Source: a virus
Direction: 5' to 3' (one strand)
Length of the DNA: 64,000 nt
Virus record (IMG/VR): IMGVR_UViG_3300013102_000030
Span: 62,001-126,000 of that record
In this document: positions 7,828 through 52,227 of the stretch, one piece after another
Layout: each line of letters starts with the position of its first letter
Position numbering within the stretch: the first letter of the stretch is position 1
The notes under the pieces: generated by a model
The model's database searches: none
Told to the model about the DNA's origin: nothing
The model's input: the letters and a program-made list of their open reading frames with translations, nothing else
Program-made: the position numbers and the translations under genes

Positions 7828-7828
7828 T

Positions 7829-37656: not shown

Positions 37657-37701
37657 TTGCGAAAATAGTCTAGACCTGATACAATGGTCTAGACTATTTT
37701 T
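37657..37701 (+). promoter_or_regulatory. Promoter in the loop of a perfect 15 bp terminator hairpin
   Basis: TTGCGA (37657-37662), 17 bp, TACAAT (37680-37685). The spacer is the left arm AAAATAGTCTAGACC (37662-37676), the 9-base loop holds the -10, and the right arm GGTCTAGACTATTTT (37686-37700) ends in the T run. Incoming transcripts should terminate; new RNA starts inside the right arm. Confidence 0.85.
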
Positions 37702-37722
37702 GTTCCCCGACGAAAGACAATA

Positions 37723-38742
37723 ATGACAGAAAAAATCCTCCTGACCGGTGCTGGTGGAGCAATTGGCGTTCATATGCTAGCCCACCTGATGCACAACACG
37801 GACGCTACTGTAATCGCAACCGGAAGCTTCCGTAACAAGGGGTACTACGACCGCATTACCCGAGTCTGTAGGAATCATCCGGACTGGAAAGATCGTATTG
37901 AGATTCTAGTTCACGACCTTACAGTCCCGTTCTCCACCCGTCAAGTGGAATCCCTTCAGGGCGTTGACCACATCATCAACCTTGCTTCCCTCTCGGATGT
38001 CTACGATTCCATCGAGAATCCGGTACCGTTTGTCCGCAACAACGTTGATCTTGTCCTGAATATGCTGGAACTTGCGCGTCAGATCAAGCCAAAGACTTTC
38101 ATTCAGTTCTCAACCGATGAAGTCTACGGCCCCTGTGACGTAAACTCCAACGGACACAAGGAATGGGACACCATCCTGCCGTCCAACCCGTACGCAGCCT
38201 CCAAGGCAGCGCAGGAAGCCATTGCCATCTCCTACTGGAGAAGCTATGGAGTCCCTGTCATTCTCACAAACACTATGAACAATTTCGGTGAGATGCAGGG
38301 AGTTTCCAAGTTTACTGCTATGATTCAGAAGAAGCTTCAGGAAGGCGAGAAGGTAACAGTTCACGCAGCTTCTGACGGACAGATCGGCACCCGCTACTAC
38401 TTGCACTCCCGCAACGCGTCGGATGCTGTTCTGCACATCCTGAAAAACCTACCGGCAACGCTCCACCAGCCGGGAGAAATCGACCGTCCAGACCGCTACA
38501 ATGTGGTTGGAGACAAGCAGGTTTCAAACCTTGACCTCGCTCAGACCATTGCGGATCTGATGGGCAAGGAACTGGATCACGAGCTTGTAGACTTCCACTC
38601 TGAGCAGCCCGGACACGATTTGCACTACGGACTCGATGGTGCTAAGCTCAAGGCGACAGGATGGGAATCTCCCTACTCCTTTGAAGACTCCCTCAAGAAC
38701 ACCATTGAGTGGCAAGTCCGCAATCCCGAGTGGATGAAGTAA
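37723..38742 (+). CDS. NAD-dependent sugar epimerase/dehydratase
   Basis: 339 aa, extended SDR. Rossmann motif LLTGAGGAIGVHM at 4-16, FSTDEVYG near 124, catalytic YAASK near 151. The arrangement resembles dTDP-glucose 4,6-dehydratase and UDP-sugar epimerases; substrate not assignable. With two glycosyltransferase genes downstream it may supply sugars for modifying virion or host surface. ATG behind GACGAAAG, after the promoter/terminator element. Confidence 0.87.
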   Translation: MTEKILLTGAGGAIGVHMLAHLMHNTDATVIATGSFRNKGYYDRITRVCRNHPDWKDRIEILVHDLTVPFSTRQVESLQGVDHIINLASLSDVYDSIENPVPFVRNNVDLVLNMLELARQIKPKTFIQFSTDEVYGPCDVNSNGHKEWDTILPSNPYAASKAAQEAIAISYWRSYGVPVILTNTMNNFGEMQGVSKFTAMIQKKLQEGEKVTVHAASDGQIGTRYYLHSRNASDAVLHILKNLPATLHQPGEIDRPDRYNVVGDKQVSNLDLAQTIADLMGKELDHELVDFHSEQPGHDLHYGLDGAKLKATGWESPYSFEDSLKNTIEWQVRNPEWMK

Positions 38743-38752
38743 TCTGATCGAG

Positions 38753-38782
38753 CGGTCCCAGCACCCTTCTGTGCTGGGGCCG
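38753..38782 (+). terminator. GC-rich hairpin before the rIIA-like gene
   Basis: A 12 bp stem (38753-38764 with 38771-38782, one G-T) and 6-base loop. No good T run, so termination is uncertain. Confidence 0.5.
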
Positions 38783-38814
38783 CGCCCTCTAACAAACTAA
38801 AGGAAAAAGTACAT

Positions 38815-40986
38815 TTGAAGATCGAAGTAAAAGAAGCTACAGTTCTCTCCAACGTTCCACAGGGAAACGTCACCGCAATGTCTATCTCGGTGGACGGCAT
38901 GGAACACATCATGTCCCTTCTGACCAACCTGTACAAGGACCCTGAACTCGCTGTCATCCGTGAGTACTACACAAACGCACTGGATGCTCACGTAGCAGCC
39001 GGAGTCACCGACAAGCACGTTCTGGTCACCCTCCCGTCTTGGGACTCCCCCACATACGTTGTACAGGACTTTGGCATCGGTATGTCTGAAGAAGACATCA
39101 AGAACATCTACGCACAGTACGGTGCCTCCACCAAACGCAACACCAACGATCAGGTTGGCGCTTTCGGTCTTGGATGCAAGTCCGCCCTCACCATTGCCAC
39201 TCAGTTCACCATCGTATCCGTCAAGGATGGCTGGAAGACCACCGCCCTGATTTCCAAGACGGAAACTGGTGTCAACACCATCAACATCATCAGCCGCATT
39301 GATACGTCTGAAGGTAACGGAACCACTGTCAAGATCCCTGTTCCGGATGACTACAGCTTCAACCGGAAGGCTGAGAAGTTCTTCCCGTTCTCTGCTCCGG
39401 GACTGGTCAAGGTCAACGGCAATGAACCGAAGTACGTTCTGGAAGGTCTGACAAAGGTCACCGACCCCAACGATCCAACCCGTGAAGTCTTCCTTCAGCC
39501 TGACACCTACGGAACCTCTTACCTTATCATGGGTAACGTTGGATATGCCCTGTCCGATGATGAAATCAAGTCCTCCCTTGCACGTCTGAAGCGTGAGCAC
39601 AGCCGACTCTTTCTCAACATGCCCAAGTACTTCCCAGTACCCATCGGATCTGTTGACCTTACTCCGTCCCGTGAAGGTCTGCGGTTCACTGAGAAGACCG
39701 AAGACCTTGTTGACGAACTGATCACCTTCATGCTTGACGATCTCGCCCGTATCGCACAGGAAGAGATTGACAACTCCACTAACCTAACCGAATTCTGGAA
39801 GGCTCAGGAGAAGTGGGGAAACCTGCTTGAGAAAGACAAGATGAACGTCTGGAAGGGCGAGCACGTTCCGGCATGGATCGATCTGGACAACGAAATGCGG
39901 ATCATTGAACGATCTGACTACTACGGCTCCAGCCACCAGACCACCAAGCGGTTCAACCTCAAGCGGGATTCCGAACGTATCCTTGTCACCGGCTTCTCTG
40001 CCGACCAGTACAAGCGCGTCAACTCCTACCTGACCCCCTACATGAAGGCTGTGGATCTGGACTCCGCTGTCTTCGTGATCACCGACGACACGGAACTGTT
40101 TACCAACAAGTGGATTCCATTCCTTGAAAAGGTGACAGTCGTCTCCGGTGATGATATCATTGCCAAGGGCAAGGAACAGCGCAAGAAGGATCGAGCGTCA
40201 GCTTCGTCCTCCGCAGGTCCGGTCACTCGTGAGAAGACCAAGTACCCTGTTGTCTTCCTTGACGATGAGAAGATCCGCTGGGTTCCCTCTGATGAGATCC
40301 CTGATGATACTCCGTACTTGATGCGTACCCACGTTTGGCAGAACAGTCATCTTGACAACTTCGTGAAGAACCTGTACTATTTTGATCTGAACACCGATAA
40401 GGATCTCAGCGCGGATCGAGTCAAGGCTTTTGAAGCCCTGACGAAATCTCGCACGATTATCCTGATGGGTGGCGGTCGATCAGAAACCACGCTGCTGTCT
40501 CGCGTTCCAACGACTTATCCTCTCGCGGATGATGCCAAGGCCGCAGCAGTTGATGTAAAGGCTCTGATCACTCCGGAAGTTCTGGCCCACTACTCTGTGA
40601 CCAAGAGTTCTTGGCAGCAGTTCCTTGACCGTGCTGGTCTCCGCAACAAGATCGACCGGATCAAGGACAAGAAAATCAAGGCAGTCATCATCCCTGAAGA
40701 AGCCACTCGTAAGGCTTACGACAAGGCAAAGGCTACCATCGATACACTCTCTTGGGCCATGATCAAGGGTGTTGAAATCCCGTCCATGGAACTCAACGAC
40801 ACCAAGGATTCCACCTTGGAACTGACCAAGAAGTACCCTCTGGTCGATGCCATCACCACATGGCAACTGAACGACAAGAGCCGTAACCATCTCATCACGT
40901 ACCTCAATGCTGTACACGATGAGACGGAAGCCGCGCTCGCGTCAAAGGTTCTACCGCCCATCCCGGCTGTACCTGCATCTGTCTGA
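38815..40986 (+). CDS. rIIA-like protein with GHKL ATPase domain
   Basis: 723 aa. The N-terminal 200 residues are a GHKL ATPase fold: REYYTNALDAHVAAG (E..N motif) near 46, DFGIGMSEEDI (DxGxG) near 84, GAFGLGCKSALT near 116. The rest resembles phage T4 rIIA-type proteins. The rIIB-like gene follows, as in other phages. T4 RII affects membrane integrity and exclusion by host prophages; the exact role here is unknown. Start TTG behind AAAGGAAAAA. Confidence 0.82.
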   Translation: MKIEVKEATVLSNVPQGNVTAMSISVDGMEHIMSLLTNLYKDPELAVIREYYTNALDAHVAAGVTDKHVLVTLPSWDSPTYVVQDFGIGMSEEDIKNIYAQYGASTKRNTNDQVGAFGLGCKSALTIATQFTIVSVKDGWKTTALISKTETGVNTINIISRIDTSEGNGTTVKIPVPDDYSFNRKAEKFFPFSAPGLVKVNGNEPKYVLEGLTKVTDPNDPTREVFLQPDTYGTSYLIMGNVGYALSDDEIKSSLARLKREHSRLFLNMPKYFPVPIGSVDLTPSREGLRFTEKTEDLVDELITFMLDDLARIAQEEIDNSTNLTEFWKAQEKWGNLLEKDKMNVWKGEHVPAWIDLDNEMRIIERSDYYGSSHQTTKRFNLKRDSERILVTGFSADQYKRVNSYLTPYMKAVDLDSAVFVITDDTELFTNKWIPFLEKVTVVSGDDIIAKGKEQRKKDRASASSSAGPVTREKTKYPVVFLDDEKIRWVPSDEIPDDTPYLMRTHVWQNSHLDNFVKNLYYFDLNTDKDLSADRVKAFEALTKSRTIILMGGGRSETTLLSRVPTTYPLADDAKAAAVDVKALITPEVLAHYSVTKSSWQQFLDRAGLRNKIDRIKDKKIKAVIIPEEATRKAYDKAKATIDTLSWAMIKGVEIPSMELNDTKDSTLELTKKYPLVDAITTWQLNDKSRNHLITYLNAVHDETEAALASKVLPPIPAVPASV

Positions 40987-41014
40987 ATTACAAACAACTG
41001 AAAGGCAATACTAG

Positions 41015-41971
41015 ATGACATTGTTTTCCCTCTCCGAAGACCGCAAGGGCAAGACTCTTACGATCTTCTTTGACAACGGAGACTGTGAGCCGATCCCGGA
41101 ATCTCACGTCAACTTCAAGAAGATCCTTGGAATGTGGCTTGAAGGTGGCAAGATCGATGACACCGAAGTCCGAGAACTGACAAAGATCATGGAGACGGTT
41201 GCCAAGAAGCTTGCCGTCCTGTCCGAGCGTATCACTGTGGACTCCGATGGAGTGTACTTTGATGGTGATCCGCTCAACGGTGAAGTCTCCGAACTGATCA
41301 AGAACGCGTACCTGAACGACGAAGAGCTTCAGGTTGGCTCTCTGGTCAACTTCATTGAGAAGGCTATGACCAACCCGTCCCTGAAGTCGCTGGATGATCT
41401 CTACCGCTGGATCAAGAACGGTGACTTGGTCATCGATCCTGACGGTGATATCCTTGCCTACAAGGGCACCGTCCTGAACTCCAAGGGCATCCCTGAGTCG
41501 GTCCACTCCGGTACGGCATTCGTCAACGGTGAGAAGATCACCGGCAAGATCCCGAACGTCGCTGGAACCACCATCACCATGCCGCGCTCCAATGTCAACG
41601 ACAACGAAGCCATTGCATGCTCCACAGGTCTGCACGCTGGTACGTACCGCTACGCCTCCAGCTTCGCTCAGCACTTGATTCAGGTCAAGATCAACCCTCG
41701 TGACGTTGTGTCTGTCCCGAAGGATGCCCGTGACCAGAAGATGCGTGTCTCCCGGTACATCGTACTGGACAAGATCACCGAGCGCGTCAAGACGACCTTT
41801 GCCAAGGCTCCTGTAGCCGTCAAGGAGATCTCCGAGACCAAGAGTGAGATCAAGACCGAGAAGCCTGCTGTACCCGCAGCAGAACGCATTGGAGCCGTCC
41901 GTGACTCCAAGGGCCGCTTCATCAAGGGAGCCAAGGTTCCCCGTGACGAGAAGGGACGGTTCATCCGATGA
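41015..41971 (+). CDS. rIIB-like protein
   Basis: 318 aa. Central part resembles RIIB: ITVDSDGVYFDGDPLNGE, then YRWIKNGDLVIDPDGDILAYKGT and CSTGLHAGTYRYAS, INPRDVVSVPKDA. The C-terminal 50 residues are Lys/Arg-rich (RDSKGRFIKGAKVPRDEKGRF). Behind GAAAGGC, 28 bases after the rIIA-like stop; the pair probably works together. Confidence 0.82.
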   Translation: MTLFSLSEDRKGKTLTIFFDNGDCEPIPESHVNFKKILGMWLEGGKIDDTEVRELTKIMETVAKKLAVLSERITVDSDGVYFDGDPLNGEVSELIKNAYLNDEELQVGSLVNFIEKAMTNPSLKSLDDLYRWIKNGDLVIDPDGDILAYKGTVLNSKGIPESVHSGTAFVNGEKITGKIPNVAGTTITMPRSNVNDNEAIACSTGLHAGTYRYASSFAQHLIQVKINPRDVVSVPKDARDQKMRVSRYIVLDKITERVKTTFAKAPVAVKEISETKSEIKTEKPAVPAAERIGAVRDSKGRFIKGAKVPRDEKGRFIR

Positions 41972-42189
41972 GCCAGAATACAGAAACCTCTAGCAAGAGT
42001 GGCATCGGCTTTGTCGGCCTGCTGACTCTGCTCTTCATCGGCCTCAAGCTGGCCGGTATCGGTGTGGTTGCAACATGGTCTTGGTGGTGGGTTCTTTCCC
42101 CAATCTGGATCACATTCTCCCTTGTGTTTGTGATTGCACTTGTTGCATTCATCATCTTGGGCATTGCGTTCCTCATCAAAAATAAGTAG
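41968..42189 (+). CDS. Small membrane protein, 73 aa
   Basis: Starts in the ATGA overlap with the rIIB-like stop. Two hydrophobic helices (FVGLLTLLFIGLKLAGIGVVATW and ITFSLVFVIALVAFIILGIAFLI) with short polar ends. Translationally coupled to the rII pair, so it may act with it at the membrane. It could also be holin-like, though no endolysin is adjacent. Confidence 0.75.
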   Translation: MSQNTETSSKSGIGFVGLLTLLFIGLKLAGIGVVATWSWWWVLSPIWITFSLVFVIALVAFIILGIAFLIKNK

Positions 42190-42227
42190 TACAATAGGTT
42201 TACCGCTCCTCGGGGCGGTATTCCTTT
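42190..42227 (+). promoter_or_regulatory. TACAAT -10 and leader hairpin before tRNA-Arg(CCT)
   Basis: TACAAT (42190-42195) overlapping the previous stop. Hairpin TACCGCTC/GGGCGGTA (42201-42208, 42213-42220) precedes the tRNA. Confidence 0.5.
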
Positions 42228-42301
42228 GCCCTTGTAGCTCAGCAGGATAGAGCGTCCCTCTCCTAAAGGGAAGGCCACCAGTTCGAATCTGGTCAAGGGC
42301 A
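42228..42301 (+). tRNA. tRNA-Arg (CCT)
   Basis: Acceptor GCCCTTG/CAAGGGC, anticodon arm TCCCT-CTCCTAA-AGGGA with anticodon CCT, T-loop TTCGAAT. Confidence 0.93.
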
Positions 42302-42302
42302 C

Positions 42303-42331
42303 GTGACAAAACAATTTGAAGATGATATAAT
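42303..42331 (+). promoter_or_regulatory. Promoter of the tRNA-Thr/Cys group
   Basis: GTGACA (42303-42308), 17 bp, TATAAT (42326-42331) with TGA extension. Confidence 0.75.
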
Positions 42332-42362
42332 GGTTTCATCAACAAGTTATGTCCGTTGAAAT

Positions 42363-42434
42363 GCTTCCTTAGCTCAGTGGTAGAGCGCATTCTTGGTAAG
42401 AATGAGGTCGCGGGATCGATTCCCGCAGGAAGCT
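42363..42434 (+). tRNA. tRNA-Thr (GGT)
   Basis: Acceptor GCTTCCT/AGGAAGC, identical to the other Thr tRNA; anticodon arm CATTC-TTGGTAA-GAATG with anticodon GGT; T-loop ATCGATT. Confidence 0.92.
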
Positions 42435-42441
42435 CTATGTT

Positions 42442-42554
42442 TCTGCGTCCCCCATGATGTTTTAGGCCGAGTGGGTACGTTGATAGACCTGAGTCCCCAT
42501 TTAGCGTCAACGCGCAAGGGCGAGGGTCCGTGGGTTCGAATCCCACACGCAGAG
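42442..42554 (+). ncRNA. tRNA-like RNA with normal acceptor and T arm but aberrant body
   Basis: 113 nt. Acceptor TCTGCGT/ACGCAGA (42442-42448, 42547-42553) and T arm GTGGG-TTCGAAT-CCCAC are perfect. Between them lies about 70 nt with CCCA/TGGG, CGTTGA/TCAACG and GAC/GTC pairings but no standard anticodon arm. It could be a tRNA with an insertion, a decaying class II tRNA, or another tRNA mimic. Confidence 0.55.
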
Positions 42555-42564
42555 ACATTGACCT

Positions 42565-42639
42565 GCGGGTATGGTCGAAAGGCAAGGCGGCTGACTGCAA
42601 ATCAGCAGAGTCCCGGTTCGATTCCGGGTTCCCGCTCCA
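42565..42639 (+). tRNA. tRNA-Cys (GCA)
   Basis: Acceptor GCGGGTA/TTCCCGC (one T-T), anticodon arm GCTGA-CTGCAAA-TCAGC with anticodon GCA, T arm CCCGG-TTCGATT-CCGGG. CCA is encoded at 42637-42639, the only case I see in this window. Confidence 0.92.
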
Positions 42640-42663
42640 CTACGATTTTTGAAAGGACTGAAT

Positions 42664-42861
42664 ATGACAATCGCTACACTGCCAGTAAGGGTGCTCAATG
42701 CATCCTACGAAGACCTAGGACCGACTACGCTAGATCGTGCCATGGCGCTTGTCGAAGTTCAGGGCCGAGCAGAAATCATCATGGTTGACGAAACCAAGAC
42801 CATCCGAACAATGGGCGGACGAGAGTTCTTCCTGCCGAAGATGATTCGACTTCTCACATGA
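42664..42861 (+). CDS. N-terminal half of a split HNH endonuclease
   Basis: 65 aa from ATG 42664, behind GAAAGGA. VRVLNASYEDLGPTTLDRAMALVEVQGRAEII..FFLPKMIRLL matches the N-terminal module of bacterial HNH proteins that in single-chain members leads into the HNH domain. Here it stops (ATGA) exactly where that domain begins in the next frame. It may form a two-chain enzyme with the 42858 product. Confidence 0.7.
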   Translation: MTIATLPVRVLNASYEDLGPTTLDRAMALVEVQGRAEIIMVDETKTIRTMGGREFFLPKMIRLLT

Positions 42862-43178
42862 AAAAGGTTGATGTATATTGGGCACCGAAGACATGGTCCC
42901 GAGAAGGAGTAATCAAGCGAGACGGAGGTATCTGCGGATACTGTCTCAGCAGGAACGGTGACACTGTTGACCACATCCTAGCAAAGGATCTCGGTGGTAA
43001 GGGCGAATGGTTGAACACCATGGCCTGCTGCCTCAAATGCAACGGAGCCAAGTCCAACATGACTCTGGAAGCATGGGGAAAGCCCATCCTCCATGACATG
43101 AGCAAGGAGAGGGCTATCCCGAAGCAAATGTACTACCGGAGTGAATTCTCCAGACGCAAGCGTAAGAAGAACCACTAG
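42858..43178 (+). CDS. HNH endonuclease domain protein
   Basis: 106 aa. Zinc cysteines CGYC near 27-30 and C..CN near 54-58, the catalytic VDHILAKDLGG near 38 and N near 51 form a complete HNH domain. The C-terminus is basic. The ATG overlaps the previous stop, so translation is coupled. It cuts DNA; as a free-standing nuclease it may be a homing-type element or serve packaging or host-DNA degradation. Confidence 0.85.
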   Translation: MKKVDVYWAPKTWSREGVIKRDGGICGYCLSRNGDTVDHILAKDLGGKGEWLNTMACCLKCNGAKSNMTLEAWGKPILHDMSKERAIPKQMYYRSEFSRRKRKKNH

Positions 43179-43181
43179 ATT

Positions 43182-43212
43182 GTCCCGGTTACCCAGTAGC
43201 CGGGACTTTCTG
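43182..43212 (+). terminator. Rho-independent terminator after the HNH gene
   Basis: An 11 bp stem (43182-43192 with 43196-43206, one T-G) and 3-base loop, then TTTCTGTT. Confidence 0.8.
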
Positions 43213-43229
43213 TTGCCCAAAAGGTGATT

Positions 43230-43451
43230 ATGATAGACTATCTAAAATGGCTGTTCAATAGGAAATGCCAACACGAGAGAATCCGCTGCATTCACGGAGA
43301 CGAAATCATTCAGGCTGGATACAAGAGGGCGACATGCCTTGACTGCCCGAAGCTCTTTGATTCCCTGCCGGAGTATTGCTCCTTCACTCTGGAGAAGCAT
43401 CCGTCCTTTGTTGTCCCTGTGACACACACAATGGACCCTCACCACAAATAA
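43230..43451 (+). CDS. Small Cys/His protein, 73 aa
   Basis: ATG 43230 preferred over GTG 43224; AAAAGG upstream. CQHERIRCIHG with CLDC near 35 suggests one zinc site (C, H, C, C). The remainder is polar. Unknown function; last gene before the convergent terminator. Confidence 0.7.
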   Translation: MIDYLKWLFNRKCQHERIRCIHGDEIIQAGYKRATCLDCPKLFDSLPEYCSFTLEKHPSFVVPVTHTMDPHHK

Positions 43452-43452
43452 G

Positions 43453-43485
43453 AAGACCCCCTCCGAAGAGGGGGTCTTTCTTTTA
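43453..43485. terminator. Bidirectional terminator between convergent genes
   Basis: AAGACCCCCTC/GAGGGGGTCTT (43453-43463, 43468-43478) with loop CGAA is followed by TTTCTTTT on the plus strand, and by a pyrimidine-rich stretch on the minus strand. Confidence 0.88.
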
Positions 43486-44904
43486 CAATACTGTAAAGCT
43501 TTGGAGATCAAAGCCAATCTCAGAATCAATGACGAATGCCATCAATCCGGGATCGGAGTCAGATCCTGTCTTGTTGGCCCACCAGTCGGAGCCGTTGTCC
43601 AGCGTTGGAGTGGCGATCCAGTACTTCTGCTTACCAGTCTTGCGGGACCGGCCTGAAGGCTTTAGTCCTAGTGTATGGTAGTGAGCGGTGATCAGGATGT
43701 CTGATTCGGCAATCGGAGAGTTTCCGTGAACCTGCTTGGCCCACCAGTTCTCCATCTGCGCCAGCGAGGAGTCTTCACCGTGCACAAGGCCGATGCCAAG
43801 GCCCTGAACGTCGATATTGAGGCTCTTTTCCCAGTCTCCGGGGAATCGGAAGTCTACGTGCCCGTAAGCCTCTGGAGCGAGCTTGTACGCCTTCTGGATC
43901 TGCTTCAGGAGGAAGAGGCCCCAGTCGTCTGACGGACGGCCTAGAATGTCCTTGCCCTTTCGCCATGCTCCGTGATTGGAGGGAACTCCGGCTACGGTAA
44001 CCTTGTCGTGTGTACCGGCCAGCAGCGTGATAAACTCCTGCTCAAGCGTTCCCGCAAGGTCAAGCTGCTGCATGATGCTGAGGTCATTGGTGAATCCCTG
44101 CTGAGCGGTGTTTTCGAAGCTCTCAACAACGTCTCCACCATCAAGGAAGACCGCTTCAGAGCATCCTTGTTCTTCAATGTACTTGGCAAGCTTTTCCTTC
44201 TTCTCCATGACTCGCTCAATCAGAGCCTTGGAATCTCCACGGGAGCCGACCTTACCGGCCTGAAGATCCGAGAACGGAACAATTAGTGTACGGTTTGGGT
44301 TCTTGATCTTCTCAAGGGGACGGAGACCGTTGATGTTGATGGAGCGGTCACGGACTCCAATGGTGGAAGCGTAGGTTTTGACTTCTGCAAAGAGTGTAGT
44401 AAGGTCGAAGGTGTCAGGAGATTTCTTGCGGATGTTGAACTTGTAGTAGGAGAGCCAATCTCCACCGTACTGCTGCCACTGACGGACCTGTACAGTTTCA
44501 TTGAGAACTTCAAAGACTTCAGGATCGATCTTGAAGAAGCGCAGGATGTCGGAGAAGTCCTTCATATCCGGCTTGTTCTGAGCGGGGGAGACGATCTCAC
44601 CCTCATCACCAACAAGAGTGGCTTGAGGTTCCCATCCCTTAGGGGGTTTGACGACTCCCAGCAAAGGTGCTACGGTAGTTGTAGGAGTTCGGGGGATGCC
44701 AACAGGACTTGGAGCACAGTGCTTCCGGAAGTGGTTGGATACAGCGTCTGCCGAGATCTTCTCGTGGTTGTCTGTGATGTACTTGGCGAGAACGGTGTAA
44801 GGGGTTGCATCTTCTTCACGCCATGAATGAACAGCTTGAGACATGTCATGAGGCAGGTTGCACGTCACACACTGCTCTTCATATTTCGTAATGGGGTTTG
44901 TCAT
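43483..44904 (-). CDS. Calcineurin-like metallophosphoesterase, only reverse-strand gene
   Basis: 473 aa from ATG 44904. Phosphoesterase motifs: FSDLQAGK (first metal motif, His replaced by Gln), FLDGGDVVESF (GD), GVPSNHGAW (GNH), GLVHGEDSS and ITAHYHTLGL (H.H). The N-terminal 60 residues have CVTCNLPH..H..C, perhaps a DNA-binding zinc element. The start is chosen because a reverse promoter (TTACGC, 17 bp, TAGAAT 44917-44912) puts the RNA start on this ATG; a longer start at 44913 exists. It may be a nuclease of the SbcD/Mre11 type or another phosphatase. Confidence 0.78.
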   Translation of the reverse strand: MTNPITKYEEQCVTCNLPHDMSQAVHSWREEDATPYTVLAKYITDNHEKISADAVSNHFRKHCAPSPVGIPRTPTTTVAPLLGVVKPPKGWEPQATLVGDEGEIVSPAQNKPDMKDFSDILRFFKIDPEVFEVLNETVQVRQWQQYGGDWLSYYKFNIRKKSPDTFDLTTLFAEVKTYASTIGVRDRSININGLRPLEKIKNPNRTLIVPFSDLQAGKVGSRGDSKALIERVMEKKEKLAKYIEEQGCSEAVFLDGGDVVESFENTAQQGFTNDLSIMQQLDLAGTLEQEFITLLAGTHDKVTVAGVPSNHGAWRKGKDILGRPSDDWGLFLLKQIQKAYKLAPEAYGHVDFRFPGDWEKSLNIDVQGLGIGLVHGEDSSLAQMENWWAKQVHGNSPIAESDILITAHYHTLGLKPSGRSRKTGKQKYWIATPTLDNGSDWWANKTGSDSDPGLMAFVIDSEIGFDLQSFTVL

Positions 44905-45360: not shown

Positions 45361-45551
45361 TGCTGGGAAACTACCAGAAGTACGAAGTAAACGTCAAGTT
45401 CATCTACGAAGGTGAAGTCTTTCCCGGAGATCCGGATGATGTTTACCAGCTTGCAGAGCAGGAAAAATCCTTCATCCGTGGAGAACTGGACGCGCTGTTT
45501 GAAACAGCAGAGGTCAAGAGTCTCACCGTAACCCCTGTTATAGGAGAGTAA
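45360..45551 (+). CDS. Small hypothetical protein, 63 aa
   Basis: TAATG overlaps on both ends with its neighbours. Acidic; one beta-rich half (YEVNVKFIYEGEVFPG) and one helical half (VYQLAEQEKSFIRGELDALFE). No family recognised. Confidence 0.7.
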   Translation: MLGNYQKYEVNVKFIYEGEVFPGDPDDVYQLAEQEKSFIRGELDALFETAEVKSLTVTPVIGE

Positions 45552-46609
45552 TGAAAGTACTTGGACTAGCCGCTGACAATGGGGGTTGCGGCTTTTATCG
45601 TCTCCGTGCTCCCGCTGAGGCAGCACTTGCCCTCGGTGTTGATATCACGATTGCAGACGGTATCGATGCAAAAGCCACCAAGTTTCCTGACGGCACGGTT
45701 CAAGTAGATGAACTCCACACGGACGCTGACCTTATCATAGTTCAGCGTCCGTTGGACAACTCAATGACCGCCATTATTGAACAGGCCAAGAAGCAAGGCA
45801 TTGCTACGATGGTGGAGCTTGATGACGACTTCTCCACCGTTCATACTCGAAACGTAGCGCATTCTTCCATCACTGGCAAGGCCACTCTTGGTAACCAGTG
45901 GGTAGAGAAAGCTGCTGCCACAGCGGATCACGTATCCATCTCCACTCCACAGCTTGCCAAGTACGCCCGTCATGGCCGATACTCAATCCTCAGGAACTGT
46001 GTCCCTGAGTCCATCTTTGATGTAGTCAACGTCAAGTCGGAAGGACAGAAGTGGCCCCGTATTGGCTGGTCAGGCACTGTCCAGACTCACCCGTTCGATC
46101 TTCAGGAGACCAAGGGACGAGTAGCTGACGTACTGGCCGAGAATGGTCTTCCATTCAACGTAATCGGTGACGGGCAACAGGTGGCAACGGCCCTCAGGCT
46201 CAAGCCTGATCATCCGGTCTATGCTACGGGATGGGTTCCAATCGAGCAGTACTACATGCATCTGTACTCTTTTGTTGACATCGGAATCGTTCCGTTGGAG
46301 ATCTCTCCCTTCAATCAGGCCAAGTCGGCTCTGAAGGGTCTTGAGTACGCTGCCCTTGGAATTCCGTTCGTAGCTTCTCCTACCCGCGAGTATGAGCGGC
46401 TGGCAGCTTACGGAATCGGTAAGATTGCACGCAATCCGGCTGAGTGGAAGAAGCACCTTCAGAGGATGATTGATCGTCCTGCTGAAACCGAAAGAATCGG
46501 CAAAGAGTCTCGTGATAGAATTAGAGCAGAACACACCTACCGTGTGAACGCTCCCCAGTGGATTGAAGCTTGGGAGAAAGCTATACACTATCGAAAGACC
46601 CAGCCATGA
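45551..46609 (+). CDS. Glycosyltransferase, GT4-like
   Basis: 352 aa, GT-B type. GCGFYRLRAPAEAALALG at the start (acceptor-side loop), VELDDDFSTVH near 92, RIGWSGTVQTHP near 169, IVPLEISPFNQAKSALKGLEYAALGIPFVASP near 258 (donor-binding E motif). It transfers a nucleotide-activated sugar; acceptor unknown. Coupled to neighbours by TAATG and ATGA. Confidence 0.87.
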   Translation: MKVLGLAADNGGCGFYRLRAPAEAALALGVDITIADGIDAKATKFPDGTVQVDELHTDADLIIVQRPLDNSMTAIIEQAKKQGIATMVELDDDFSTVHTRNVAHSSITGKATLGNQWVEKAAATADHVSISTPQLAKYARHGRYSILRNCVPESIFDVVNVKSEGQKWPRIGWSGTVQTHPFDLQETKGRVADVLAENGLPFNVIGDGQQVATALRLKPDHPVYATGWVPIEQYYMHLYSFVDIGIVPLEISPFNQAKSALKGLEYAALGIPFVASPTREYERLAAYGIGKIARNPAEWKKHLQRMIDRPAETERIGKESRDRIRAEHTYRVNAPQWIEAWEKAIHYRKTQP

Positions 46610-46854
46610 ATAAACCGCAACTAATCGCTGAGATCAACAAGCTTCCAGACAACGTTGAGTTTCTAGTCTCCAAAGATGCTGAGGGCAACGCCTTCTCACC
46701 ACTTGAAGCCTTCTCCCTTGAGTATGTGGATGAACTCGATTATGACTCCGGCATCATAGAAAACGTTTTCACGGAAGAGGATCTGCGGGAGGACTCAGAG
46801 GACGGCGAGATCCCTGACAACTTCAGGCTTGTAGCGGTCGCTTGGCGTAGGTAG
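46606..46854 (+). CDS. Small acidic protein, 82 aa
   Basis: ATG 46606 overlaps the glycosyltransferase stop (ATGA). Strongly acidic (EYVDELDYDSG, EEDLREDSEDGEIPD) with a short alpha/beta start (LIAEINKLPDNVEFLVSKD). Possibly a DNA mimic or regulator; nothing firm. Last gene of its operon. Confidence 0.7.
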   Translation: MNKPQLIAEINKLPDNVEFLVSKDAEGNAFSPLEAFSLEYVDELDYDSGIIENVFTEEDLREDSEDGEIPDNFRLVAVAWRR

Positions 46855-46885
46855 TACCGGGCATCCAAAAGTTTTTCTCATAGTG

Positions 46886-46915
46886 TTGACAAGGTGAATT
46901 TCCTAAGACTATAGT
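46886..46915 (+). promoter_or_regulatory. Strong promoter with a 12 bp SD-covering repeat
   Basis: TTGACA (46886-46891), 18 bp, TATAGT (46910-46915). GGTGAATTTCCT (46893-46904, inside the spacer) pairs with AGGAGATTCACC (46953-46964), the binding site directly before ATG 46965, with one G-T. Local RNA starts after the left arm. Confidence 0.83.
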
Positions 46916-46964
46916 AGAGGCATAAGCAAAAGAGCACACCACTACATAGCAAAGGAGATTCACC

Positions 46965-47975
46965 ATGGCACATGATCTGGATTTTGACGAACAGGGTAAC
47001 GCCCGTTTCTTCTCCGGAGAAGGAAAGACCCCTTGGCACAACGTTGGCAAGGTCATCTCGGGAGAGGCAACCGCTGAGGAAGCCCTGAAGCTCGCTGGAC
47101 TCGACTGGACGGTCAACCTCCGTCCCACGTACCACGAGATCCCGTCCAAGTACGACGACGAAGGCAACGTAGAGGAATGGAAGCTCGTCAAGATTCCAGA
47201 CCGCTTCTCCGCTGTCCGTGACATCGACAACAAGAGCCTCGGAATCGTTGGCAAGGGCTATCACGTCTACAACAACGTGGAGTCGTTCGCCTTCCTGAAC
47301 AACCTGACGGACACCGGTTCCGGAGACGCTGTCTTCTCGACCGCTGGTGCCCTGAACGGTGGCAAGTCGGTCTTCATGACCATGAGGATCGGTGACCGGT
47401 TCATGGTCGGTGATCAGGATGCTCACGATCTGTACATCATGGCAACCAACAGCCACGATGCCAAGCAGTCCTTCATCGTCTCCATCACTCAGATCCGGGC
47501 AGTCTGCCGGAACACGGTTACTCTCGGACTGGCAGCAGCCAAGACCAAGTGGAGCCTGCGGCATAAGATGTCGCTGGAAGGACGCGTACAGGATGCACGA
47601 GACATCCTGAAGATGTCCTTCAACTACGAGAAGGAGTTCCAGAAGCTCGTCTCTGAGATGATCGACATTGAGGTCAACAAGCAGAAGTTCTACGAGATCA
47701 TTGATGAATGCCTGCCTGAGTCTCCGCAGCAGCACACCAAGGACCTTGACGCGATCATGAACGTCTGGGAGAACGAAGAGACCTGCCGGATGGGCGGCGG
47801 TGACAAGGCCAACGGCTGGAGGGCCTTCAACGCAGTTACCTTCTGGACCGACAACGTCAAGGACTACCGCACCCCGGAGTCCAAGTTCAACTCCATCATC
47901 GGAGCCGGTGTCGGAACCGGTCTGGCTGAGAAGCTTCGCCCCGCAGTCCAGAAGCGGATCATGGCTCTGGCCTAA
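46965..47975 (+). CDS. DUF932 phage/plasmid-like protein
   Basis: 336 aa, usual family length. Recognisable segments: TPWHNVGKVISGEATAEEALKLAGLDWTV, FSAVRDIDNKSLGIVGKGYHVYNNVESFAFLN, TNSHDAKQSFIVSITQIRAVCRNTVTLGL, and WRAFNAVTFWTDN. Found on many phages and plasmids; function unknown, sometimes strongly expressed. AAAGGAG is a near-perfect binding site. Regulated by the nested hairpin. Confidence 0.87.
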   Translation: MAHDLDFDEQGNARFFSGEGKTPWHNVGKVISGEATAEEALKLAGLDWTVNLRPTYHEIPSKYDDEGNVEEWKLVKIPDRFSAVRDIDNKSLGIVGKGYHVYNNVESFAFLNNLTDTGSGDAVFSTAGALNGGKSVFMTMRIGDRFMVGDQDAHDLYIMATNSHDAKQSFIVSITQIRAVCRNTVTLGLAAAKTKWSLRHKMSLEGRVQDARDILKMSFNYEKEFQKLVSEMIDIEVNKQKFYEIIDECLPESPQQHTKDLDAIMNVWENEETCRMGGGDKANGWRAFNAVTFWTDNVKDYRTPESKFNSIIGAGVGTGLAEKLRPAVQKRIMALA

Positions 47976-47978
47976 GAG

Positions 47979-48032
47979 TTGCGGAAATAACTAAACACTG
48001 GTAGGATGGGTCTAGAAATAGATCCATCCTAC
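47979..48032 (+). promoter_or_regulatory. Promoter nested in a 13 bp inverted repeat
   Basis: TTGCGG (47979-47984), 17 bp, TAGGAT (48002-48007). GTAGGATGGGTCT (48001-48013) pairs with AGATCCATCCTAC (48020-48032), one G-T. The -10 is in the left arm; the predicted start is in the loop. Confidence 0.75.
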
Positions 48033-48051
48033 TACTGTATAAGGACCCATA

Positions 48052-49173
48052 TTGCCTTGGAGCGCTGACGAGAACCGCGAGTGGATTCTCTCCCAGATTT
48101 TACCTTCTGACCACATTCTTGACGTAGGAGCCGGAGCCGGTATCTGGGCTGACCTTCTACGCGGAAAGGGAGTCAGCAAGCGCAACATCCACGCAGTGGA
48201 GATCTTTGAGCCGTACATCTCCCGGTTCGGTCTGGAAGAGAAGTACAGCAAGATCTACCTAGGCGACTTCCAGACGCTGGGAATCCGTACCGATTACTAC
48301 AACGTACTCATCATGGGTGACGTTCTGGAGCACTTCAAGATGGAAGATGCCCTGAAAGTCTGGGAGAAGGCTCGACAGATCGTCGGCCCTCAGGGCATTG
48401 TCCTGCTATCAACCCCCATCATCGACTTCCCGCAGGGTGAGGAAGAGGGGAACATCCACGAAGCACACCTGTCAGCGTTCGACATGGAAGCGCTCAAGGG
48501 CCTCTCAGGAGTCTACGGACACGCTGAGGGTACAATCATCGGCTCTATCGCTGCAAAGGGCGCAGATACGCCTGTAGCGCAGGATCTGAGTGTCCTGATC
48601 ACCACCATCCCGACCCGGTCTGAACTCATGGTGGAGGCTCATCGGAGTGTAATCCAGCAGTCCCTTCTTCCCAAAGAGATCATTGTTCAGGAGGACACCG
48701 AAAGACTAGGAGCGCCCGGCAACCGTGATGCCGGTATCGACAAGGTCAAGACGAAATACGTCGCGCTGCTGGATGACGATGACTACTTCTACCCGGACCA
48801 CTTGGAAACACTATACCAAACTGCGCTTGACACAGATGCAGACATTGTGTATTCTTGGTTCGACGTTGACGGTGGAGAAGACCCCTTCCCGGAGAACTTT
48901 GGAAAGCCTTGGAACCCCAAGAAACCTGTCCAGACGACCGTAACTGTTCTTGCCAAGACCGATGTCATCCGCAAAGCCGGTGGATACACCAACAAATTCG
49001 ATCTGAACATGGATGCTCTGGGTGAAATTGCCCAAGGGAGCACTGCTGGAGAAGATTACCGAATGGTTTTCAATGCCAATTCTCAGGGTGCCAAGATCGT
49101 CCATGTGCCCAAAAAGACATGGGCCTACAGGCATCACGATTCCAACACGTCAGGACACTCTGACCGCTGGTAA
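48052..49173 (+). CDS. Methyltransferase-glycosyltransferase fusion
   Basis: 373 aa. Residues 1-165: SAM methyltransferase (HILDVGAGAGIWADLL motif I, VEIFEPY, NVLIMGDVLEHF). Residues 175-373: GT2-type glycosyltransferase (SVLITTIPTRSELMVEAHRS, EIIVQED, KYVALLDDDDYFYPDHL with the DxD). Both parts look intact. TTG start behind AAGGACC. It may modify a sugar and attach it, perhaps with the epimerase and GT4 enzyme; target unknown. Confidence 0.85.
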   Translation: MPWSADENREWILSQILPSDHILDVGAGAGIWADLLRGKGVSKRNIHAVEIFEPYISRFGLEEKYSKIYLGDFQTLGIRTDYYNVLIMGDVLEHFKMEDALKVWEKARQIVGPQGIVLLSTPIIDFPQGEEEGNIHEAHLSAFDMEALKGLSGVYGHAEGTIIGSIAAKGADTPVAQDLSVLITTIPTRSELMVEAHRSVIQQSLLPKEIIVQEDTERLGAPGNRDAGIDKVKTKYVALLDDDDYFYPDHLETLYQTALDTDADIVYSWFDVDGGEDPFPENFGKPWNPKKPVQTTVTVLAKTDVIRKAGGYTNKFDLNMDALGEIAQGSTAGEDYRMVFNANSQGAKIVHVPKKTWAYRHHDSNTSGHSDRW

Positions 49174-49205
49174 GATAAGTATGCTGACTGGATAAATCCA
49201 CATGG

Positions 49206-49237
49206 TACACTGGTTGGGGAGGCTCCATCACCAACTG
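49206..49237 (+). promoter_or_regulatory. -10 with SD-covering hairpin before 49248
   Basis: TACACT (49206-49211). TGGTTGG (49211-49217) pairs with CCAACTG (49231-49237, two G-T), which touches the GGAG binding site. The -35 (CTGACT, about 16 bp upstream) is weak. Confidence 0.5.
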
Positions 49238-49247
49238 GAGAATAATC

Positions 49248-49541
49248 ATGACCAAACCAGACTACGCTCTAGAGTACGTCTTTCGACGTAGCCAGTTCAA
49301 CCGTACCATGTGGATTCTTGTCGCTATCTGGGTGGCACTGCGCCTTTGCCGTGCCCTCATTATCCTCACTGTGGGACTCACATGGCTTGCGTCTATCCCT
49401 GCCATGATCATCTTCTGGGGATCAGGTCTCATCTGTGGACTGATCCTTGCCACATACTATGTATACCGCCGCTCCGTGCGTATTGATTCAATCGAGCGCG
49501 AGAGGAGTAACATAGCCAAGCTAAAAGAAAAGGTAAAATGA
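49248..49541 (+). CDS. Membrane protein, 97 aa
   Basis: ATG behind CTGGAG. Two adjacent transmembrane helices (MWILVAIWVALRLCRALIILTVGLTWLASIPAMIIFWGSGL, about residues 20-70), then a charged coiled-coil-like tail. No family recognised. Overlaps the RNA ligase start by 4 bases. Confidence 0.75.
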   Translation: MTKPDYALEYVFRRSQFNRTMWILVAIWVALRLCRALIILTVGLTWLASIPAMIIFWGSGLICGLILATYYVYRRSVRIDSIERERSNIAKLKEKVK

Positions 49542-50311
49542 CCGAAACGTACATCTTTGACCTCATCAATGGTGCAGAGCTTTTCAAGATGCAGCAGGAA
49601 GGCCGCATCAACCGACAGGTTCACCCTAAGCTTCCGATCTCCATCTTCAACTACACAGCCGCAGCACAGTTCAAGAACATCTGGACTGACGCTGAGCGGA
49701 TCTGCCGTGGCTTGATCATTGAGGACGGAACCGGTAAGGTGATTGCCCGTGGACCGTCCAAGTTCATGAACTATGGTGACCCCAAGGCTGCTGAAGTCTC
49801 TCTGGAGGACGAGGTCTGGGTTACCCGGAAGGAAGACGGCTCCCTAGGCATCGGCTGGGAGTACAATGGTGAGTTTGGTGTTGCTACCCGTGGTTCCTTT
49901 GACTCTCCTCAGGCACGACACGCTACGGCCAAGCTGACTGAGGAAGAAAAGCAGGACATCCTGAGTGAGCGCACCAAGGGCCGAACCGCCATCTGGGAGA
50001 TTGTCTACCCTGACAACCGAATTGTCCTAGACTATGGTGATAGGGATGAACTGATCAAGATCGGTGGAGTCCGCAACGATTCCGGCCTCATCTCTTTGCG
50101 CCCTTTCAAGCTCTTCATGTCCATCCGCAAGGGTGGAAATCCCGTGATGACCTTCAAGGAAGCCCTTGAGCTTCCAATTCCGGATGACCAAGAGGGTTAT
50201 GTCATTGACATCCTGAAGGACGGATGGATTCAAGGCCACGTCAAGCTCAAGGGTGAAGCCTACAAGCTTCTTCACGGCCTGCTGACCAACACCAACGCTC
50301 GCCGGATCTGA
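49538..50311 (+). CDS. RNA ligase, Rnl1-like, N-terminal part ending at an in-frame TGA
   Basis: 257 aa. ICRGLIIEDGTGKVIARGPSKFMNY and TRKEDGSLGIGWEY (motif I, Lys of KEDGS) are typical of T4 Rnl1-type ligases; AIWEIVYPDNRIVLDYG, EGYVIDILKDG and HVKLKGEAYKLLHGLL are motifs III-V. The chain stops at TGA 50309-50311 after ARRI, while the same frame continues with ATG and a ligase-like C-terminal region. It may still have catalytic activity alone. Confidence 0.82.
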   Translation: MTETYIFDLINGAELFKMQQEGRINRQVHPKLPISIFNYTAAAQFKNIWTDAERICRGLIIEDGTGKVIARGPSKFMNYGDPKAAEVSLEDEVWVTRKEDGSLGIGWEYNGEFGVATRGSFDSPQARHATAKLTEEEKQDILSERTKGRTAIWEIVYPDNRIVLDYGDRDELIKIGGVRNDSGLISLRPFKLFMSIRKGGNPVMTFKEALELPIPDDQEGYVIDILKDGWIQGHVKLKGEAYKLLHGLLTNTNARRI

Positions 50312-50722
50312 ATGCAGCTTGCGTGGAGGGCATGCAAGGATCTTCTGCCCAACGATCCCAAAGTGATTGCGTTCCGACTCGGAAACGACCCTCGGGACTT
50401 TGAGCGGATTGACACTACCAAGACCATTGAGGAGACCTTCCTTGAGAAGGTTCCCGATGAGTTCTACGGATGGGTGACCAAGCAAATTGACAGCATTGAA
50501 GACAATGTGTACAGTCTTACAGGTCAGGCAAAAGTCCTGATTGACAAGATTGCTGATGTCTCGGACAAGCGTGAGCGCTGGGAAATGGCCAAGGATCACC
50601 CGCTCTGCACTGAGATTCTGAGGGCTAAGAACTCTGAAGACCTCTCCGGATGCACCGTCTTGGCTTGGAAACTGTCCCGTCCGGGTGACGAGACTCCCTT
50701 CAAATCAAAGGAAGAAGACTAA
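50312..50722 (+). CDS. C-terminal part of the Rnl1-like RNA ligase
   Basis: 136 aa, same frame as the preceding ORF, ATG directly after its TGA. FLEKVPDEFYGWVTKQIDSIEDNVYSLTGQAKVLIDKI and the later RWEMAKDHPLCTEIL, CTVLAWKLSRP resemble the helical C-terminal domain of phage Rnl1-like ligases. In single-chain relatives a Trp usually follows the Ile where TGA stands (TGG to TGA). Made by reinitiation (TGAATG), read-through, or not at all if the stop is an error. Confidence 0.7.
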   Translation: MQLAWRACKDLLPNDPKVIAFRLGNDPRDFERIDTTKTIEETFLEKVPDEFYGWVTKQIDSIEDNVYSLTGQAKVLIDKIADVSDKRERWEMAKDHPLCTEILRAKNSEDLSGCTVLAWKLSRPGDETPFKSKEED

Positions 50723-50723
50723 C

Positions 50724-51218
50724 TTGAAGAAACTGATCATTGCCGGTATTGCCGTCGCAGCGCTCGCGCTCACTGGATGTGGGGCCTCCGGCAGTCGCGG
50801 CTTTGAGAGTGACGATTACGACTACGGCGGATACTCCAGCAATGGAGGATGGACCGACTCTGATTGGGACATGGACCGAACAACGGTCTATAACAACAAC
50901 ACGTACTGCCAAGGCGGAACGTACATGCCTCTGGCAAACAACCAGTACTCGTGCAACCGGAACGGAGTCGTCACGGCTCCTCTGGTCCGTCCCAAGCAGA
51001 TCATACCTCCCAAGTCCCAGCAGAAGGCTCCTGCCGACGTTCTGAAGCGAGTGGAGCAGCAGAAGGCTGAACGCCTGAAGCAGCGTCAGGAAGCTGCAAA
51101 GAAAGCTGAGCAGCAGAAGCAGCAACAACAATCACAGAAGAATGCCCCAGCGCAGAAGGCACCGGCTCCCGCCAAGCCTCCTGCTCCTGCAAAGGCTCCT
51201 CCTGCCAAATCCAAGTAG
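50724..51218 (+). CDS. Lipoprotein, 164 aa
   Basis: TTG 50724 is chosen because it gives a full lipoprotein signal: KKLIIAGIAVAALALTGC, lipobox LTGC at 16-19, and AAGGAAGAAG lies upstream. The mature part is Gly/Tyr/Asp-rich with a Cys pair (YCQGG, YSCNR), then a long Lys/Gln/Ala/Pro tail. Probably exported and anchored outside the membrane; phage lipoproteins often block superinfection, which is only a suggestion here. Confidence 0.8.
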   Translation: MKKLIIAGIAVAALALTGCGASGSRGFESDDYDYGGYSSNGGWTDSDWDMDRTTVYNNNTYCQGGTYMPLANNQYSCNRNGVVTAPLVRPKQIIPPKSQQKAPADVLKRVEQQKAERLKQRQEAAKKAEQQKQQQQSQKNAPAQKAPAPAKPPAPAKAPPAKSK

Positions 51219-51227
51219 AAAGAGAAA

Positions 51228-52178
51228 ATGCTAAACCCTAACCAAGAACTTCTGATCCTGCGCGGTTTGCAGGGTTCAGGTAAGACCACCTTCGCCCACC
51301 AGTGGGTAGCTGAAGATCCGGACTGGCGCTTCCGTGTCAACCGGGATGACCTCCGCAAGCAGGGCTACAACATGCTGTGGGGCCTGTCAAACCACATGGA
51401 GGGAACAATCTCCCTCATGGAGGAAGCCTGCGCCAAGGCAGCGCTCGCGGCTGGTTTGTCTGTCGTCATCGACGCAACGAACCTCAAGGCCCGTACCGTG
51501 AAGGAATGGTACGCAGTAGCTGAAAAGGCCGGAGTTCCCGTCCGTGTCCATGACATCGACACTCCTCTTGACATATGCATCGAGAGGGACAAGAATAGGG
51601 AGAAGAAGGTTGGCGAAGATGTCATCCGACGCTACAACGACCGGTTCTTCCAGAAGGGGAAGCTGCCACCGGTTCCCGAGAATGTCAAGAAGGAAGGAGT
51701 TTCTGTGCAAGGCCGAGCTTACGTACCGAATCCTGACCTTCCAAAGGCTATCTGGGTTGACGTTGACGGCACGCTGGCTGAGAGGGTCCATCCCGGAGCC
51801 AACCAGCCTGTCCGTGGACCGTTTGACGAAGACCGAGTGATGGAAGACGCACCGATCCCACACATCGTGGAACTGGTCCGAATCCTTCACGCTGCCGGAT
51901 TCAAGATCGTCATCATGTCCGGACGTACAGATGGATGCAAGGCTCTTACGGAACAGTGGCTCATCGAGCACGCTATCCCGTACGACGACATCTTCATGCG
52001 CCGTACCGTAGAAGATAAGAACCGCAAGGACAACATTGTCAAGCACGACCTCTTCTGGGCGAACGTTGCCCCGAAGTACAATGTGGTCTACGCACTGGAT
52101 GACCGTCAGCAGGTTGTTGACTTCACCCGTGATGTCCTGAAGATCCCTGTGTTGCAGGTAGCTCCCGGACTGTTCTGA
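51228..52178 (+). CDS. Polynucleotide kinase-phosphatase (Pnkp)
   Basis: 316 aa, same order as T4 Pnkp. Kinase: LRGLQGSGKTTFA near 12 (P-loop), VNRDDLR near 38, IDATNLKARTV near 81. Phosphatase (HAD): IWVDVDGTLAE near 178, IVIMSGRTDG near 226, ALDDRQQVVD near 288. It restores 5'-phosphate and 3'-OH ends so the ligases can seal cut tRNA. Lies between the Rnl1-like ligase and the CCA enzyme. Confidence 0.93.
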   Translation: MLNPNQELLILRGLQGSGKTTFAHQWVAEDPDWRFRVNRDDLRKQGYNMLWGLSNHMEGTISLMEEACAKAALAAGLSVVIDATNLKARTVKEWYAVAEKAGVPVRVHDIDTPLDICIERDKNREKKVGEDVIRRYNDRFFQKGKLPPVPENVKKEGVSVQGRAYVPNPDLPKAIWVDVDGTLAERVHPGANQPVRGPFDEDRVMEDAPIPHIVELVRILHAAGFKIVIMSGRTDGCKALTEQWLIEHAIPYDDIFMRRTVEDKNRKDNIVKHDLFWANVAPKYNVVYALDDRQQVVDFTRDVLKIPVLQVAPGLF

Positions 52179-52179
52179 T

Positions 52180-52227
52180 TCGACACAAAGCAGGTTGAGA
52201 GGTATGATTATCTCTCAACCTGCTTTT
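52180..52227 (+). promoter_or_regulatory. Promoter in the loop of a perfect 15 bp terminator hairpin
   Basis: TCGACA (52180-52185), 17 bp, TATGAT (52203-52208). Left arm AAAGCAGGTTGAGAG (52187-52201) is the spacer, the 10-base loop holds the -10, the right arm (52212-52226) ends in TTTT. Geometry matches 37657-37701 with no sequence similarity in the arms. Confidence 0.85.

What the first reader, a model, noticed from the sequence alone, without database searches (positions are those of the whole stretch)
37657..52227. Two terminators with a promoter in the loop
At 37657-37701 and 52180-52227 the geometry is the same: -35 directly before the left arm, a perfect 15 bp left arm as the 17 bp spacer, -10 in a 9-10 base loop, right arm and T run after. 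Incoming polymerase should stop and new transcription should begin in the same 45 bases. The arm sequences are unrelated, so they are not copies. This is a compact stop-and-restart device.
Basis: partly seen in the sequence, partly recalled or inferred. Interest (0 to 1): 0.8.

Follow-up and report, generated by a model that had tools for sequence, protein, structure and literature searches.

The report
Phage terminators with nested forward promoters
In a group of Arthrobacter phages, many of the RNA hairpins that should end one gene's transcript have the promoter of the next gene woven into the same ~45 bases; the two hairpins reported here carry the promoter's -10 box in the loop, an arrangement kept in relatives even where the hairpin sequence has been replaced.

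Summary
Both elements are strong hairpins (RNA fold z -7.7 and -8.1) with a T-rich tail and a promoter-like sequence in the stated geometry: TTGCGA-17-TACAAT and TCGACA-17-TATGAT, -10 in the loop, left arm as spacer.

Within this one genome, two such coincidences are only marginally above chance (shift test P=0.06). The comparative evidence is stronger. At the polynucleotide-kinase (PNK) locus the -10-in-loop geometry persists in relatives with four distinct stems. At the tRNA-His locus Racecar keeps it with different arms, though its -35 is weak.

The same phages carry a larger class in the mirror register: -35 in the loop, right arm as 17-bp spacer, -10 just after. There are about 9, 17 and 8 per genome, with a sharp 17-bp peak that is absent in 200 unrelated viral contigs. 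Wobble pairs in that class are G.U rather than A.C (57:2), so the hairpin works as rightward RNA, not as a DNA operator.

Best reading: compact 'stop, then restart' junctions for host sigma-A polymerase. Termination and initiation are inferred, not measured. Closest known: ESAS of cluster K mycobacteriophages, and an antisense promoter in the loop of the Clostridium sol terminator. A new variant of a known kind.

The parts
37541..37570 (+). promoter-like sequence of the upstream unit, tRNA-His alone (TTGCCA-18-TACAAT, TG before -10)
   Evidence: a promoter-like sequence also precedes tRNA-His in Mimi, Talia1610, Racecar and Atuin
37578..37651 (+). tRNA-His(gtg), the transcript that element 1 should end
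   Evidence: ARAGORN
37657..37662 (+). element 1: -35 TTGCGA
   Evidence: TTGCAA in Mimi and Talia1610, TTGCAG in Racecar
37662..37676 (+). element 1: left arm AAAATAGTCTAGACC, serving as promoter spacer
37677..37685 (+). element 1: loop TGATACAAT, holding extended -10 TACAAT at 37680-37685
37686..37701 (+). element 1: right arm plus T run GGTCTAGACTATTTTT; predicted new start at about 37691-37693
   Evidence: arm and fold; start position inferred from -10 spacing, not tested
37723..38742 (+). downstream gene: NAD-dependent epimerase/dehydratase family protein (annotated UDP-glucose dehydrogenase in relatives)
51228..52178 (+). polynucleotide kinase/phosphatase, the transcript that element 2 should end
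52180..52185 (+). element 2: -35 TCGACA
   Evidence: TTGACA in Mimi, Racecar, Talia1610 and L104, TTGACG in L085
52187..52201 (+). element 2: left arm AAAGCAGGTTGAGAG, serving as promoter spacer
52202..52211 (+). element 2: loop GTATGATTAT, holding -10 TATGAT at 52203-52208
52212..52227 (+). element 2: right arm plus T run CTCTCAACCTGCTTTT; predicted new start at about 52215-52217
   Evidence: arm and fold; start position inferred, not tested
52247..52567 (+). downstream gene, 106 aa, DUF7455, with AAGGAG before its ATG
53485..53532 (+). possible weak member of the mirror register in the window: hairpin with -35 TAGACA in the loop, right arm in the 18-bp spacer, -10 TAGAAT after it

Best explanation
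Each element is a composite junction that ends one rightward transcription unit and begins the next, interleaved at base resolution. A sigma-A promoter needs two hexamers about 17 bp apart and is largely indifferent to the spacer; a terminator needs two complementary arms of about 15 bp and is largely indifferent to their sequence. The left arm therefore sits in the promoter spacer, the -10 sits in the unpaired loop, and the start point falls in the right arm. RNA arriving from upstream (tRNA-His, or polynucleotide kinase) contains both arms and should terminate at the U tract. RNA started inside the element lacks the left arm, so it cannot refold the hairpin and should read on into the next gene (epimerase-like gene, or DUF7455 gene). 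The phage family uses the same trick more often in the mirror register, with -35 in the loop and the right arm as spacer. Shown here: the geometry, hairpin strength, direction of the hairpin, persistence across stems, and the family-wide registers. Inferred: that polymerase actually stops and starts there, and that host sigma-A polymerase does it.
For: Fold and terminator scores, rightward better than leftward. At the PNK locus the same geometry occurs in G000, in Mimi/Racecar/Talia1610, in L085/L086/L103 and in L104, with four distinct stems; arms aligned from the loop outward give 13 of 15 pairs changed on both sides and no broken pair, left-arm identity 3-9 of 15. At the tRNA-His locus Racecar has largely different arms but the same layout. 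Register statistics: -35-in-loop promoters peak at 17-bp spacing on the gene strand in three genomes (9, 17 and 8 at 17 bp, at most 5 at any other spacing tested) and not in 200 unrelated viral contigs with 141 hairpins. Wobble test: G.U 57 against A.C 2 in the mirror-register hairpins; all 7 curated -10-in-loop hairpins fold at least as well in the rightward RNA as in the leftward one. Extended -10 sites are also enriched 20-40 bp after hairpin centres. No sigma factor and no RpoB-type polymerase found in the record.
Against: No transcript data exist for these phages in what I could search. In this genome alone the -10-in-loop count is not significant (P=0.06). Atuin has a plain terminator at the tRNA-His locus and, at the PNK locus, a hairpin with -35 in the loop and TATAAT after it; L102 lacks the PNK element, so it is dispensable. 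The Racecar tRNA-His -35 is weak (TTGCAG, 3 of 6) and fails my strict rule, leaning on its extended -10. L025 has a hairpin with a -10-like loop but no -35. Mirror-register hairpins have modest U tracts, so their stopping power is less sure. The compensatory counts are partly built in, because each element was recognised as a hairpin.
Confidence: 0.74

Rival explanations
1. Ordinary terminators whose AT-rich loops happen to resemble a -10; the real promoter of the next gene lies elsewhere or there is only read-through.
For: Chance per hairpin is about 1-2% and in-genome P is 0.06. A -10-in-loop match at 17 or 18 bp occurred for a few hairpins among 141 scanned on both strands in unrelated contigs. 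Atuin and L102 do without it.
Against: At the PNK locus both boxes are retained at 17-18 bp spacing in four distinct stems, and the mirror-register class shows these phages do interleave promoters with hairpins.
Confidence: 0.12
2. The hairpin is not a terminator but a 3'-end stabiliser or processing signal of the upstream RNA (for example after tRNA-His), with a promoter overlapping it.
For: U tracts of the mirror-register class are modest; element 1 starts about 5 bases after the tRNA-His 3' end.
Against: The window's elements have good U tracts and clearly positive rightward terminator scores.
Confidence: 0.09
3. The inverted repeat is a DNA operator: a dimeric phage regulator binds it and blocks or activates the promoter inside, as proposed for ESAS in cluster K mycobacteriophages.
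For: Inverted repeat overlapping a -35/-10 promoter resembles ESAS (PMC11373665).
Against: Arms are unrelated between sites and have diverged at the same site; wobble pairs are G.U rather than A.C in the mirror-register class. Both point to RNA pairing, not to a DNA sequence read by a protein.
Confidence: 0.03
4. A supercoiling-sensitive switch: the repeat extrudes as a DNA cruciform that presents the -10 unpaired and so controls initiation.
For: The -10 lies in what would be the cruciform loop.
Against: The excess of G.U over A.C pairs in the related class (57:2) is not expected for DNA pairing, where G.T and A.C both mispair; the promoter also occurs in the mirror register with -10 outside the hairpin.
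Confidence: 0.02

Closest known systems
Extended start-associated sequences (ESAS) of cluster K mycobacteriophages (PMC3203893, PMC11373665)
   Same: Intergenic, about 45-50 bp, SigA-like -35/-10 spaced 17-18 bp overlapping a 15-17 bp inverted repeat, several copies per genome, upstream of genes.
   Different: ESAS arms are conserved in sequence between copies and their differences do not preserve pairing, so the authors favour a DNA-binding protein. Here arms are unrelated between sites and pairing is what is kept; the element also looks like a rightward terminator.
P_asr antisense promoter overlapping the loop of the sol operon terminator, Clostridium saccharoperbutylacetonicum (PMC9402939)
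   Same: A promoter whose mutated region overlaps the loop of a terminator.
   Different: Single chromosomal case; it drives an antisense RNA back over the operon. Here the promoter points forward into the next gene and the arrangement recurs.
Recycling termination: polymerase stays on DNA after releasing RNA and re-initiates nearby (PMC6978380, PMC6978322, PMC11347151)
   Same: A short terminator-to-promoter distance favours re-use; an in vitro reinitiation efficiency of 37-55% was reported for a downstream unit.
   Different: A behaviour of the polymerase, not a sequence element; not tested for these elements.

Membership tests
Intrinsic (Rho-independent) terminator | stable hairpin in the transcript | tested here: met
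   -26.1 and -30.5 kcal/mol, z -7.7 and -8.1
Intrinsic (Rho-independent) terminator | U tract directly after the hairpin | tested here: met
   TTTTTGTT and TTTTCT, partly paired with the arm's A tract; positive terminator scores
Intrinsic (Rho-independent) terminator | RNA release by purified polymerase | not testable with these tools
   needs in vitro transcription
Sigma-70/sigma-A promoter | -35 and -10 hexamers 16-18 bp apart | tested here: met
   9/12 and 10/12 consensus, 17-bp spacing
Sigma-70/sigma-A promoter | transcription start about 7 bases after -10 | not testable with these tools
   no 5'-end data
ESAS (cluster K mycobacteriophages) | inverted-repeat arms conserved in sequence between copies | tested here: not met
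   arms of the two elements unrelated; 3-9 of 15 identical at one locus across phages
ESAS (cluster K mycobacteriophages) | -35/-10 spaced 17-18 bp overlapping an inverted repeat | tested here: met
ESAS (cluster K mycobacteriophages) | 13-bp SAS GGGATAGGAGCCC just before the start codon | tested here: not met
   absent from 37702-37725 and 52228-52249 by reading
Recycling terminator-promoter pair | same polymerase re-initiates after releasing RNA | not testable with these tools
   needs single-molecule assay

The most novel reading that the evidence does not exclude
Interleaving the promoter with the terminator is a dedicated relay: a host polymerase that releases its RNA at the hairpin is already on the next promoter and re-initiates there without leaving the DNA, so a long series of short phage units is served by passing the same enzymes along.
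Probability: 0.15. Interest if true: 0.82.

Novelty: new variant of a known kind. Interest (0 to 1): 0.56.

Why it matters
Overlap of terminators and promoters is known case by case. If confirmed it gives natural ~45-bp insulated junctions that can be tested and reused in actinobacteria. It also offers a natural test-bed for whether bacterial polymerase recycling after termination is exploited by viruses, a question raised by single-molecule work (PMC6978380, PMC11347151) but without a natural element built for it that I found in the literature searched.

Tried and rejected
Exact-arm pattern search for element 1 in viral contigs found nothing; for element 2 it found the same contigs as L085/L086 and otherwise other hairpins with different loops. 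Searching flank motifs of the mirror-register class gave mostly chance AT-rich matches, which I used as background. 60 epimerase homologues from viral contigs: scanning their loci found no -10-in-loop case at 16-18 bp. Control phages: Adephagia, SPO1 and Daubenski show no excess, T4 one probable chance match, Streptomyces phage Blueeyedbeauty one possible mirror-register case at 18 bp; T4 and Daubenski were missed through a file-name error and redone. Literature searches for a forward promoter in a terminator loop in phages found none; the library lacks most subscription papers, and the filamentous-phage terminator/promoter overlap I remember could not be checked. Operator and cruciform readings were rejected mainly on the wobble test. 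MAFFT alignments A2/A3 were not used for pair counts because loop-length differences shift the right arms; pairs were counted from the loop outward.

Full report
WHAT IS THERE. The window is part of a 174,136-bp uncultivated virus record related to the ~193-kb Arthrobacter phages Mimi, Racecar, Talia1610 and Atuin. Both reported elements are present as described. Element 1 lies between tRNA-His (37578-37651) and a 339-aa epimerase/dehydratase-family gene; element 2 starts two bases after the stop codon of polynucleotide kinase and is followed by a ribosome site and a 106-aa DUF7455 gene. Each is a strong hairpin with a positive rightward terminator score (formula recalled from memory) and a same-direction -35/-10 pair at 17-bp spacing.

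IS IT CHANCE? For these two alone, almost. Shifting promoter positions around the genome gives 0.41 such coincidences on average and two or more in 6% of trials. Randomising loop and flank gives each hairpin a 0.8-2.3% chance. The comparative record carries the argument. At the PNK locus, Mimi, Racecar and Talia1610 have TTGACA-17-TACCAT in a different stem, the uncultivated phages L085/L086/L103 have TTGACG-18-TAAATT and L104 has TTGACA-17-TAAATT in yet another stem. Counted from the loop outward, 13 of 15 stem positions have changed on both sides between these four stems with no broken pair; this is partly built in, since each was recognised as a hairpin, but it shows that pairing and promoter boxes, not arm sequence, are what persist. 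At the tRNA-His locus, Mimi and Talia1610 keep the window's stem with TTGCAA-17-TATACT, while Racecar has largely different arms with TTGCAG-17-TACAAT; its -35 is weak and fails the strict rule. Two relatives lack the arrangement at one or both loci: Atuin (plain terminator after tRNA-His; at PNK a hairpin with -35 in the loop and TATAAT after it) and L102 (nothing after PNK). The product of chances (2.5e-10) should not be taken as a P value, because the sites are related by descent.

A LARGER CLASS. Looking at all strong hairpins, promoters on the gene strand occupy two registers: -10 in the loop, or -10 about 20 bp after the loop centre with -35 in the loop and the right arm as spacer. The second register is the commoner: with a relaxed -10 (TANNNT) there are 9, 17 and 8 cases at exactly 17 bp in G000, Mimi and Atuin, against at most 5 at any other spacing. 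Most lie between small genes near the left end, with arms unrelated between sites and loops reading TTGAC or TTGCA. In 200 unrelated viral contigs (1.72 Mb, 141 hairpins) neither register peaks at 17 bp. Extended -10 sites are also enriched 20-40 bp after hairpin centres, while the 10-20 bp bin, where the -10 would have to lie in the right arm, is empty in all three genomes.

RNA OR DNA? If the repeat acts as RNA in rightward transcripts, imperfect pairs should be G.U; if it is a DNA palindrome, G.T and A.C should be equally bad. With a finder that charges both equally, mirror-register hairpins show 57 G.U and 2 A.C; other hairpins show 175 and 77, reflecting strand composition plus some real terminators. 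The -10-in-loop set is too small for this test in that scan (4 to 1). All seven curated examples fold at least as well in the rightward RNA as in its complement, though for Racecar the difference is negligible (-25.2 and -25.0). This argues against an operator or cruciform for the class as a whole, and by extension, not proof, for these two.

MECHANISM. Spacer and arms are both nearly sequence-free requirements, so they can share the same bases. Upstream RNA carries both arms and should stop at the U tract. RNA started inside begins in the right arm, cannot refold the hairpin and should pass on. tRNA-His has a promoter-like sequence just upstream in all five phages compared, consistent with a one-gene unit that ends where the next begins. 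No sigma-70 domain or RpoB-type polymerase was found in the record; the search for a T7-type polymerase had no working control. Host polymerase is therefore the likely enzyme. Bacterial polymerase often stays on DNA after intrinsic termination and can re-initiate nearby, with 37-55% efficiency in one assay (PMC6978380; see also PMC11347151, and PMC6978322). A nested promoter would be the shortest possible hand-over, but nothing here tests that. A simpler use is insulation: each gene gets its own promoter and read-through is limited, in minimal space.

KNOWN RELATIVES. ESAS elements of cluster K mycobacteriophages share the overlap of an inverted repeat with a 17-18 bp spaced promoter, but their arms are conserved between copies and their changes do not preserve pairing (PMC3203893; PMC11373665), so membership fails on a tested feature. 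A Clostridium antisense promoter overlaps the loop of a terminator (PMC9402939), showing that a promoter in a terminator loop is not unheard of. I found no description of forward promoters interleaved with terminators as a recurring device in a phage group, in a library that lacks most subscription journals.

VERDICT. Observation confirmed; interpretation partly supported, with the function inferred. New variant of a known kind. The mirror-register class is the firmer and more surprising finding, and the two reported elements are best understood as its rarer counterpart.

Noticed in passing
G000 left-end region (L013, about 469-9500) and Mimi L012 6351-16750: Many hairpins between small early genes carry -35 (TTGAC/TTGCA) in the loop and -10 just after the right arm; in Mimi most are preceded by a conserved AGTTACAAAACTTGAATA-like sequence whose role is unexplained.
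   Followed up: partly
window 6965-7011 and 34119-34164: Terminator-like hairpins followed at once by TGGTATAA-type extended -10 sequences, so stop and start are adjacent rather than nested.
   Followed up: partly
window 37723-38742: Gene annotated UDP-glucose dehydrogenase in the relatives matches Pfam epimerase/GDP-mannose dehydratase families instead; the annotation may be wrong.
   Followed up: no
window 21998-42639 with 36556-37557, 51228-52178, 22744-24366: 30 tRNA genes together with an RNA ligase, a polynucleotide kinase/phosphatase and a Ro-like (TROVE) RNA-binding protein: looks like a tRNA maintenance or repair set.
   Followed up: no
window 52207-52234, minus strand: A weak antisense promoter-like match (ATGATA-16-GATAAT) also lies in element 2, possibly making the loop two-way.
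   Followed up: no
L087:29012 (Streptomyces phage Blueeyedbeauty): A single clean mirror-register case, AAAAGACCGGGG(TTGACAAGG)CCCCGGTCTTTT then TATACT, before tRNA-Lys, outside the Arthrobacter group.
   Followed up: no
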